A stretch of 64,000 nt of DNA from Tubiluchus corallicola. Taxonomy: Eukaryota > Priapulida > Priapulimorpha > Priapulimorphida > Tubiluchidae. Under the pieces are notes generated by a model. That model saw nothing but the letters and a program-made list of their open reading frames with translations, was not told the origin of the DNA and did no database searches. Each line of letters opens with the position of its first letter. Within the stretch, counting starts at the first letter, position 1. Made by a program: the position numbers and the translations under genes. Location of the stretch: the NCBI GenBank assembly GCA_030141605.1, contig JAQGDQ010000143.1, forward strand, positions 62,001-126,000, written 5' to 3'. Below are positions 49,601 to 52,600 of this stretch, piece after piece.

Positions 49601-52600
49601 TAACAACTATGGTAGTGGTTATACTAGTAATGATGACAACAACAACAACAACAACAAAATTTGAACCTGGTAGGAAGTGTGCTTCATTGCATAACAACTT
49701 TTTATGATTCAAGAAATAATAGCTTTTGATTTTGAGCACTAATAGTTTAGTTTCTTTTTAAATGACTGCCTAAATCTATCATTATAATTTATGAAGTTTT
49801 AATTTTTAAGTTTTCAGCTTTTTTATCTGCTTCTGCTACTTTCTTTTTCGACAGGACGTCCAATGGAATGACATAGATTACATGTCTAAACATCTGGACT
49901 TTACACTTGACGAAAACAACTTTATTGATTTAAATAACATTGTTGCTGATCTACATGCTGATGGGATGCATTATGTACCAATGACAGTAAGTATTTGCTA
50001 TTATTTGTTATTCTGTTTATTTTACCTAGGATACACAATGGAATGACATAGAATATGCAGAAAAACGTCTAGATTTTACACTCAATGACAAAACATATCC
50101 AGACTTACCTAATGTAGTAGAAAATTTGCACAAACATGGTCAGCATTATATCATAATTGTGGTAAGAACTACTGGTTTTGCTTTTTTTATTTTCTTGAAA
50201 TGAAGGTGGATATTTTTTATTGTTATTGACGTTTTGTTTTGTAAACTCCTTTTTTAGAAGTTATGCTGTTGGCACCTTAAAGTTTACAGATCATGATGTG
50301 TGACTGAAAAATTTATAATGGCACTCTAACTCCAGTTTTATATTATTATTATTGAAAGTAAATCAGCCATTATTAGCATTGATTGCCATGAATAGTATTA
50401 GTTTTGAAATAGTTTTGTTTTTTATCATGAACTAATTATTTGAAATACCCACCAATTTTAACCAAATGCAACTTGTTTGATCAAATGAAATCTAAGCACT
50501 GTGATATATTTAGGATTTTTATGAACTAATATTAAGGTTTTTATTACCATACCAAGGGGACTTTTGTTGTTTTCATTGTAGCAATAGGAACAAATAAGAA
50601 ACAAAAGTCATCACAAACAACTAGGCACAGTTATACACAATTAAGATACAAAATACTGCTATCAGAAGCAAATATTCTTAGCATTAATGAGTGAGGTTAT
50701 CAAATAAAATAGGCTGACTTTAAAACTGTGTCATCTTGGCTATAAACACACTGGCAGAATACCAACATGATTAGCATTATTAGCAAACTATAGATTTTTG
50801 ACATCTTCTTTATTTGACTGCAATTTTTGTATAATTACGACTGACTCGTGAAGATTTTATCGAAAATGTGAATGAAGACAATTGTTTTTCTCATTTTACA
50901 TTCTCAAAAAATTCCACGAGAAATAAATGCTGTTTCTGAAAAGTATTTGATTCCTTCAGCTATCATCTTGATTAAAATAAGAATTACGTATTAAAAGTTG
51001 AGAACGTTGAAGTAATGCTAGGAGATATTGAACTCTTCAACTAACTGACCATCTCAATTTCTCACTAGGTTAATACCGCAGTGTAATAAATATTGAAATG
51101 TGTCTGTCATTTTCCTTTAGGATTGTGGTATAAGTTCAACGCAAGGCCCAGGCAATTACACACCTTTTGACCAAGGCATGGCTATGGACATATTTATCAA
51201 AGTAGAAAATGGTTCTATGCCAATTCTTGGAAAGGTAATTAATGTGATACAGCCAACTGTAATCACCACTCTTGTGTGAGGTGTAGTTGAGTTTGACAGT
51301 AAAATGTTTGTTTTTCTAATATTTAATTGTAAATGATCAGTTTTCCATTTGAATGTTTGAATAGTATTTGGCCTCAGGACCATTTTAGCGCATGGGTACG
51401 CTGGGCAGTTGTCTGAGGGCTCCACAAGCATAGTCATGTTATTCTGTGTATTTGTGACACTGCTGTCAATAAATAAGTCCTAGTACCATATTAAATATTG
51501 TATTTGTGAAACTTTCCCTGCATTGTACAGAAAATATTTTTGGTCATCTTAAAATCTGTGTCTCCTAATGTTGAAACTGCACTCAGAGTGTTCATGTGCC
51601 TCACGTCGATCAATTGTGCAGGAGACTTCAATTTCAAGACTGCACAATAAGGCAGCAGCATTTGCACTGGCTTTCACCCATGTATGGAAAATGACATCCT
51701 GAAGACCTTTTACTTCAGACCAATTATAAAACAGTTCTTTACAAAGAAGTTATGCAAATGTTATGCTGTGCTGTCTCCACCTGTATGCAATTGAGTGTCA
51801 TTTATATGCTGAAATTTTTGTGTTTTTCAAGGCTCATGTAATATTGTTGAAATATTTGCTGTAGAACATGTTTTTTAATGCTTAAACATTGATTTTGTTG
51901 GAAATGCCAATATGATAAATATATGTTTATTTTTAACGACCTTTTAAATTTTTATTCCTTTGAGTTGTATAAGTACTGGGCTGCTAGCGCCCTGCTTTGC
52001 TTTGGGGTCTATAATGCTGTTAAGACAGCTCTGTTGGGCTTCATCTTGTCACATTTCCTGTCCTTGGAGATTGTTTTCTTAAACTATTATGATCTGTAGT
52101 ACCTCTCACTAGAGTAAACTAGTAAGTTTTTTTGCTAGTTTCTTTGCTTTGGTATGTATTCATAGACACTGATGAATTAAGTCGTAATTACAATTAAGAC
52201 AGTCCTGATTTATTTTTATTGTAAAATAATTACTTTGGTGTTTGCTAGCTTTATTTTTTCTGCTTTTTCATCTGTACCTGAGATAGTAAATACCATTTTT
52301 TGACTTTTTAGAGATGAACAGTATTTACTGTTTTATGAACATTTTTTATATACTAATTGGACTTTCTTGTACTGTGCAGCAGCATGTATTCTATGAATGG
52401 AATATTGCATAGAATTGCAATACAGCAGTGAGAAATATTGCATAATTTATGTGTACTCCCAAGCTCATTTTGTTTGCTCTTAAGCTTGTCAAATTTCTTG
52501 TGATAAAGAGTAAAATGGAATTGTGACAATAGTTAAACTGCAATGATTTTAGAGGTCTCTTTTCGCTATTAAAACTGAAACAACATGAATAAAGCGATTA

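What the first reader, a model, noticed from the sequence alone, without database searches (positions are those of the whole stretch)
49855..50161. GH31 exons 6a and 6b are predicted mutually exclusive exons that swap part of the active site
Two adjacent 132-nt exons, both phase 0 to 0 with intact acceptors and donors, encode homologous 44-residue segments (about 50% identical). The 43 nt between them is too short for normal splicing, so steric exclusion is expected. Both keep WNDI, equivalent to Asp404-Leu405 of human GAA (numbering from memory), but the strand before the junction is HYIIIV in 6b and HYVPMT in 6a, placing Met at the position of GAA Ile441, a residue lining the sugar subsite. 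Isoforms may differ in specificity. I know of no described isoform switch at this position in GAA or maltase.
Basis: partly seen in the sequence, partly recalled or inferred. Interest (0 to 1): 0.88.

Follow-up and report, generated by a model that had tools for sequence, protein, structure and literature searches.

The report
Two swappable exon pairs in maltase
An animal gene for a starch- and glycogen-digesting type of enzyme carries two pairs of duplicated exons that look built to be used one at a time, so one gene could make up to four enzyme versions, some differing at a sugar-contacting residue; no RNA data were available to prove it.

Summary
Exons 6a (49855-49986) and 6b (50030-50161) are both 132 nt, phase 0-0, open, 22/44 residues identical and 43 nt apart, in an 18-exon, 983-aa GAA/maltase-type GH31 gene. 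Using both or neither exon-10 copy brings an early stop. The 43- and 58-nt spacers are the shortest of 19 gaps. Both units match human GAA exons 8 and 12 in length and phase. 6a and 6b keep 16 and 15 of 18 conserved columns. Best reading: two mutually exclusive exon pairs, four possible isoforms, kept apart by the short spacers and, for exon 10, by frame. Of 11 GAA residues reported to contact DNJ, only the Ile441 position differs between isoforms (Ile in 6b, Met in 6a). Met there also occurs in 10 of 123 relatives, so a change of specificity is possible but unproven. No transcripts were available.

The parts
43032..60708 (+). GH31 alpha-glucosidase gene, 18 exon positions, 983 aa (hydrophobic N-terminal stretch read by eye, trefoil, N-terminal beta domain, TIM barrel, C-terminal domain)
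   Evidence: Spliced model open for all four isoform combinations; Pfam PF00088, PF13802, PF01055, PF21365 in the two isoforms scanned; best solved relatives maltase-glucoamylase and human GAA
49855..49986 (+). Exon 6a, 44 residues ending HYVPMT; Met at the GAA Ile441 position
49987..50029 (+). 43-nt spacer, shortest of 19 gaps; loose branch-point-like A's 17-38 nt from the donor
50030..50161 (+). Exon 6b, 44 residues ending HYIIIV; Ile at the GAA Ile441 position
54862..54979 (+). Exon 10a, 118 nt, phase 1 to 2
54980..55037 (+). 58-nt spacer, second shortest of 19 gaps; loose branch-point-like A's 24-41 nt from the donor
55038..55155 (+). Exon 10b, 118 nt, phase 1 to 2; 36/39 residues identical to 10a
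48684..48922 (+). Exon 5, upstream partner of 6a/6b (donor TAC|GTAAGT)
51121..51234 (+). Exon 7, downstream partner of 6a/6b (begins at the GAA Asp443 position)
53592..53679 (+). Exon 9, upstream partner of 10a/10b; begins with the DMNE nucleophile motif
55538..55671 (+). Exon 11, downstream partner of 10a/10b

Best explanation
Two ancestral GAA exons (equivalent to human GAA exons 8 and 12) were each duplicated in tandem in this animal's GH31 alpha-glucosidase gene, the first long ago and the second much more recently, and are spliced as mutually exclusive pairs, giving up to four isoforms. Direct 6a-to-6b or 10a-to-10b joining is prevented because the 43- and 58-nt spacers put the branch point too close to the donor; for exon 10, double inclusion or double skipping also brings an early stop. 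The 6a/6b choice swaps barrel segment 399-442 (GAA numbering), keeping Asp404 but changing the Ile441-position residue of the -1 subsite (Ile in 6b, Met in 6a) and its neighbours. Shown: exon anatomy, constraint on sequence, match to human exon units, frame consequences. Inferred: use in transcripts, exclusion, and any effect on activity.
For: Equal length and phase, open frames; all eight alternative splice sites score within the range of the gene's own constitutive sites. 6a/6b keep 22/44 residues, which 0 of 20,000 random-substitution simulations reached. 6a and 6b keep 16 and 15 of 18 columns at least 80% conserved in 123 relatives; mean identity to those relatives is 0.503 and 0.494. 10a/10b: dN 0.047-0.056, dS 0.42-0.71 over three methods, 13 of 17 differences at third codon positions. 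The two pair spacers, 43 and 58 nt, are the two shortest of 19 gaps, next 113; 1/171 if lengths fell at random (counted after seeing the data). Loose branch-point-like A's lie 17-41 nt from the donors, under the ~50-nt steric limit in PMC7969005 and PMC5740500 (passages). 10a+10b stops at codon 643, skipping exon 10 stops at codon 593. Splice variants in PMC6852536 (passages) put human GAA exon 8 at c.1195-1326 and exon 12 at c.1637-1754: 132 and 118 nt, same phases as here. [quoted passage not shown] 50% identity and one of two contact residues changed fits that picture. In the window, tblastn at E<=1 found no other duplicated exon of this gene.
Against: No transcript evidence for either exon of either pair. 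None of the 123 relatives examined carries the 6a strand VPMT, and no relative with the exon pairs was found, so conservation of the arrangement is untested. The last six residues of 6a are less typical than those of 6b (mean identity to relatives 0.35 against 0.53). Both copies are a little less like relatives (0.50, 0.49) than the flanking stretches (0.60 and 0.56). The splice-site scores are ordinary: 3-10% of all GT and 2-7% of all AG sites in the gene score as high. The steric limit comes from vertebrate work, ultrashort introns can be spliced in some species (recalled), and the branch-point motif used is so loose that any 43-nt intron would fall under the limit. Double inclusion or skipping of exon 6 stays in frame, so frame does not enforce exclusion for that pair.
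Confidence: 0.8

Rival explanations
1. One exon of pair 6 is a former exon, intact by chance or recently silenced, and the gene makes only one exon-6 form.
For: No transcripts seen; 6a lacks the Pro at residue 465 that 87% of relatives keep and the Ile at 481 that 89% keep; 6b has Glu at 446 where 98% keep Asp.
Against: Both copies keep nearly all conserved columns (16 and 15 of 18) and have ordinary splice sites; random substitution never reached their protein similarity in 20,000 trials and left the frame open in 15%. A very recent silencing cannot be excluded.
Confidence: 0.1
2. Both isoforms are made, but they are functionally equivalent; the duplication serves expression control or is near-neutral, and specificity does not change. 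(This rival accepts the splicing half of the best explanation.)
For: Met at the Ile441 position occurs in 10 of 123 relatives, and each 6a strand residue (V, P, M, T) occurs in some relative at its position; 10a/10b differ in only 3 of 39 residues; Pfam barrel scores of the two isoforms scanned are nearly equal, 394.4 and 395.4 bits.
Against: 6a and 6b differ at half their residues although both look constrained; a sugar-contacting position of the -1 subsite changes.
Confidence: 0.4
3. Both exons of a pair are included together in a constitutive transcript.
For: 6a+6b double inclusion stays in frame.
Against: A second copy of a barrel segment would be inserted in the TIM barrel (inference); the spacer is 43 nt; for exon 10 double inclusion stops at codon 643.
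Confidence: 0.03
4. Assembly artefact: two haplotypes or paralogous genes collapsed side by side.
For: 10a/10b are 101/118 nt identical.
Against: Copies lie 43 and 58 nt apart inside one gene with different flanks; 6a/6b are only 78/132 nt identical; no other exon is duplicated in the window.
Confidence: 0.02

Closest known systems
coq-2 exons 6a/6e of C. elegans, other helminths, annelids and molluscs (PMC7434440, passages read)
   Same: Two equal-length internal exons, one used at a time, replace part of the enzyme core; there the switch changes substrate choice
   Different: Unrelated enzyme; coq-2 has RNA-seq and exon-deletion data, this locus has none; here a second exon pair lies in the same gene
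OGDH exons 4a/4b (PMC7969005, passages read)
   Same: Enzyme with a mutually exclusive pair enforced by branch points close to the donor of the intervening intron
   Different: OGDH switches Ca2+ sensitivity and its intron is 118-131 nt in birds and mammals; here the spacers are 43 and 58 nt and an active-site segment is swapped
ACSL6/ACSL1 fatty-acid gate-domain exons (PMC1543647, passages read)
   Same: Mutually exclusive pair whose copies differ at a residue thought to govern substrate access (Phe/Tyr)
   Different: Unrelated fold and reaction (recalled)
PKM and PFKP, named in PMC9741552 (section 10 read)
   Same: Enzymes whose tandem duplicated exons differ at a ligand-binding residue
   Different: There the residue binds the allosteric effector fructose-1,6-bisphosphate; here it lines the catalytic sugar subsite
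Human lysosomal alpha-glucosidase GAA, exons 8 and 12, and maltase-glucoamylase
   Same: Related protein with the same catalytic residues; window exons 6 and 10 match GAA exons 8 and 12 in length and phase
   Different: No duplicated exons there to my knowledge (recalled); none showed in the listings

Membership tests
GH31 alpha-glucosidase (GAA/MGAM type) | GH31 barrel, C-terminal and N-terminal domains plus trefoil | tested here: met
   Pfam, all four above cut-off in the two isoforms scanned
GH31 alpha-glucosidase (GAA/MGAM type) | Nucleophile Asp518 and acid/base Asp616 with the other DNJ-contacting residues | tested here: met
   12 of 12 GAA positions checked (the 11 DNJ contacts named in PMC5653652, plus W481) are kept in the 6b isoform; 6a differs only at 441. 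The role of Asp518 as nucleophile is recalled
GH31 alpha-glucosidase (GAA/MGAM type) | Hydrolysis of terminal alpha-linked glucose | not testable with these tools
   Needs an enzyme assay
Mutually exclusive exons | Adjacent homologous exons of equal length and phase with intact splice sites | tested here: met
   Both pairs
Mutually exclusive exons | A barrier to joint inclusion (short spacer or frame) | tested here: inconclusive
   43- and 58-nt spacers and, for exon 10 only, frame; the barrier is inferred from sequence and a vertebrate-derived limit, not observed
Mutually exclusive exons | Transcripts contain exactly one of the two | not testable with these tools
   No RNA data; species not identified and no near-identical protein among the 120, 4 and 120 hits listed
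Enzyme specificity switch by exon choice (coq-2-like) | Isoforms act on different substrates | not testable with these tools
   Only the residue difference at GAA 441 and its neighbours is shown

The most novel reading that the evidence does not exclude
One animal maltase gene encodes a two-by-two set of enzymes by exon choice: 6a/6b retunes the -1 sugar subsite (Ile or Met at GAA 441, with Pro440 and Thr442 in 6a), changing preference among alpha-glucosides, while 10a/10b tunes another barrel segment; diet or tissue sets the mix, doing by splicing what vertebrates do with separate maltase and isomaltase domains.
Probability: 0.3. Interest if true: 0.75.

Novelty: new member of a known kind. 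Interest (0 to 1): 0.55.

Why it matters
If transcripts confirm it, this would be, as far as my searches went, the first GH31 glucosidase known to choose an active-site segment by splicing, with a second switchable exon in the same gene. It would give a natural pair of otherwise identical enzymes for asking what the residue at GAA Ile441 does, and another case beside coq-2 in which an enzyme may be retuned by exon choice rather than by gene duplication.

Tried and rejected
Whole-genome search for paralogues or short introns: the genome search 'own' answered busy in all 13 tries, so nothing is known here about other GH31 genes or the minimal intron of this genome.

Species identification: the three protein searches listed no near-identical protein; the best whole-length relatives are about 56% identical. 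Only the best 120 of 4,238 and of 4,323 hits are listed. In a midpoint-rooted tree of 124 sequences the query lay with 17 others (8 named molluscs or annelids, 5 without a name, 4 vertebrate MGAM/SI-type) at support 0.843, but the nearest by distance was a hemichordate protein, at more than 1.1 substitutions per site (names); I take the phylum as unsettled.

Relatives carrying the exon pair: the search with the exon-6a region gave 4 proteins out of 6 candidates, all with ordinary strands; no 6a-type strand VPMT among 123.

dN/dS for 6a/6b: NG86 gave dN 0.404 with dS undefined, the other two methods failed; I take synonymous sites as saturated. RNA pairing between introns was not tested.

Papers that looked relevant but were not: PMC8063059 (passages) suggests that membrane-anchored alpha-glucosidases of a sandfly may lose the last exon by splicing, a different event; PMC3479421 (passages) concerns aberrant splicing in Pompe patients; PMC3228551 and PMC11394944 gave no match to my terms; PMC9013439 (passages) discusses tandem exons in general.

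Rejected: joint inclusion, assembly artefact, chance similarity (reasons under rivals).

Full report
What was checked. The gene on the + strand at 43032-60708 was modelled exon by exon. It has 18 exon positions (20 exons counting both copies of each pair) and gives a 983-residue protein with no internal stop for all four combinations of 6a/6b and 10a/10b. Pfam finds a trefoil, the GH31 N-terminal domain, the TIM barrel and the C-terminal domain in the two isoforms scanned, 6a+10a and 6b+10b. Among solved structures the best relatives are maltase-glucoamylase and human lysosomal alpha-glucosidase. A hydrophobic N-terminal stretch suggests a membrane anchor (read by eye, not tested).

The reported pair. 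Random substitution with the same number of changes never reached this protein identity in 20,000 trials and left the frame open in 15%. For comparison I used 123 relatives: of 242 proteins held after three searches, all those under 1,200 residues; the 119 longer ones were dropped. Many of the 123 are vertebrate enzymes and not independent. In this exon 18 columns are at least 80% conserved; 6a keeps 16 and 6b keeps 15. Mean identity to the 123 is 0.503 for 6a and 0.494 for 6b, against 0.600 and 0.560 for the stretches on either side; in the last six residues 6a is less typical than 6b (0.35 against 0.53). Of 3,000 sampled pairs of relatives, the 1,342 that are 45-55% identical in this exon average 60% identity in the rest of the barrel. 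The two copies are thus as far apart as quite different family members: an old duplication, with no sign that either copy is decaying.

A second pair. Exons 10a and 10b, 118 nt each and 58 nt apart, are 101/118 nt and 36/39 residues identical; 13 of the 17 differences fall at third codon positions; dN is 0.047 (NG86, LWL85) or 0.056 (YN00) and dS 0.71, 0.66 or 0.42. Both copies therefore appear to be held by selection on protein. Their length is not a multiple of three: including both stops at codon 643 and skipping both stops at codon 593. For exon 6, including both or neither stays in frame.

Splicing. All eight alternative splice sites score within the range of the 15 constitutive donors and 15 constitutive acceptors of the same gene; but such scores are not rare (3-10% of all GT and 2-7% of all AG sites in the gene reach them). 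The two spacers are the shortest of 19 gaps (43 and 58 nt; next 113). Loose branch-point-like A's in them lie 17-38 and 24-41 nt from the donor. PMC7969005 and PMC5740500 (passages) put the steric limit near 50 nt; the second paper counts 57 human clusters (9%) with this kind of interference. Whether the limit holds in this unidentified species is not known. At E<=1, tblastn of both isoforms on the window found no further duplicated exon.

Ancestral exon units. Splice variants listed in PMC6852536 (passages) place human GAA exon 8 at c.1195-1326 and exon 12 at c.1637-1754. These are 132 and 118 nt with phases 0-0 and 1-2, as here, and exon 8 encodes GAA residues 399-442, exactly the residues aligned to exon 6. 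The exons between them are 111, 114 and 85 nt in GAA and 114, 114 and 88 nt here. The duplicated pieces are therefore intact ancestral exons.

Active site. PMC5653652 (passages) reports that DNJ in the -1 subsite of GAA is held by D404, D518, R600, D616 and H674 and by hydrophobic contacts with W376, I441, W516, M519, W613 and F649. All eleven, and W481, are kept in the 6b isoform. Exon 6 supplies two of them: Asp404, kept in both copies, and Ile441, which is Ile in 6b and Met in 6a. Exon 10 supplies none of the twelve positions checked. Met at that position is found in 10 of 123 relatives: five acorn-worm proteins, one each of a sea cucumber, a fish and an echidna, and two without a name (names). 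So 6a is a plausible working enzyme, and its difference from 6b is one that occurs elsewhere in the family.

Context. [quoted passage not shown] The 50% identity and the single changed contact residue here are what such pairs look like.

Prior work. Ten paper searches were made; six were aimed at exon switching in alpha-glucosidases, maltases or glycosidases. I saw their listings only, apart from the passages or sections of papers cited here by call, and four of the six list a small part of what they matched. None of the listed titles, and none of the passages I saw, reports such an exon pair in an alpha-glucosidase. Only open-licence papers are held, so this is weak evidence of novelty. The closest parallels are coq-2, OGDH and ACSL6 (passages).

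Verdict. The anatomy is solid and the signs of constraint on both copies are good; mutually exclusive splicing is the best reading (0.8); a functional difference in specificity is plausible but untested.

Noticed in passing
   Followed up: yes
window 35349-39055, - strand: LTR-retroelement-like stretch (Gypsy type by recall) upstream of the gene: reverse transcriptase, integrase zinc-binding and core domains in separate open frames.
   Followed up: partly
window 3992-6277, - strand: Single open frame of 762 codons holding a sulfate permease and a STAS domain, an SLC26-type transporter by recall.
   Followed up: partly
window 28906-31991, - strand: Open frames of 484 and 424 codons; the first has DUF4795, the second has no Pfam match.
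   Followed up: no
window 16053-16547, + strand: KH-domain coding stretch, resembling a FUBP-type protein (recalled).
   Followed up: no
window 21020-22824: 129-bp tandem array, 13.9 copies, 96% matches.
   Followed up: no
window 54021-54241: 115-bp direct repeat, 1.9 copies, 95% matches, in intron 9 upstream of exon 10a; may reflect local duplication activity.
   Followed up: no
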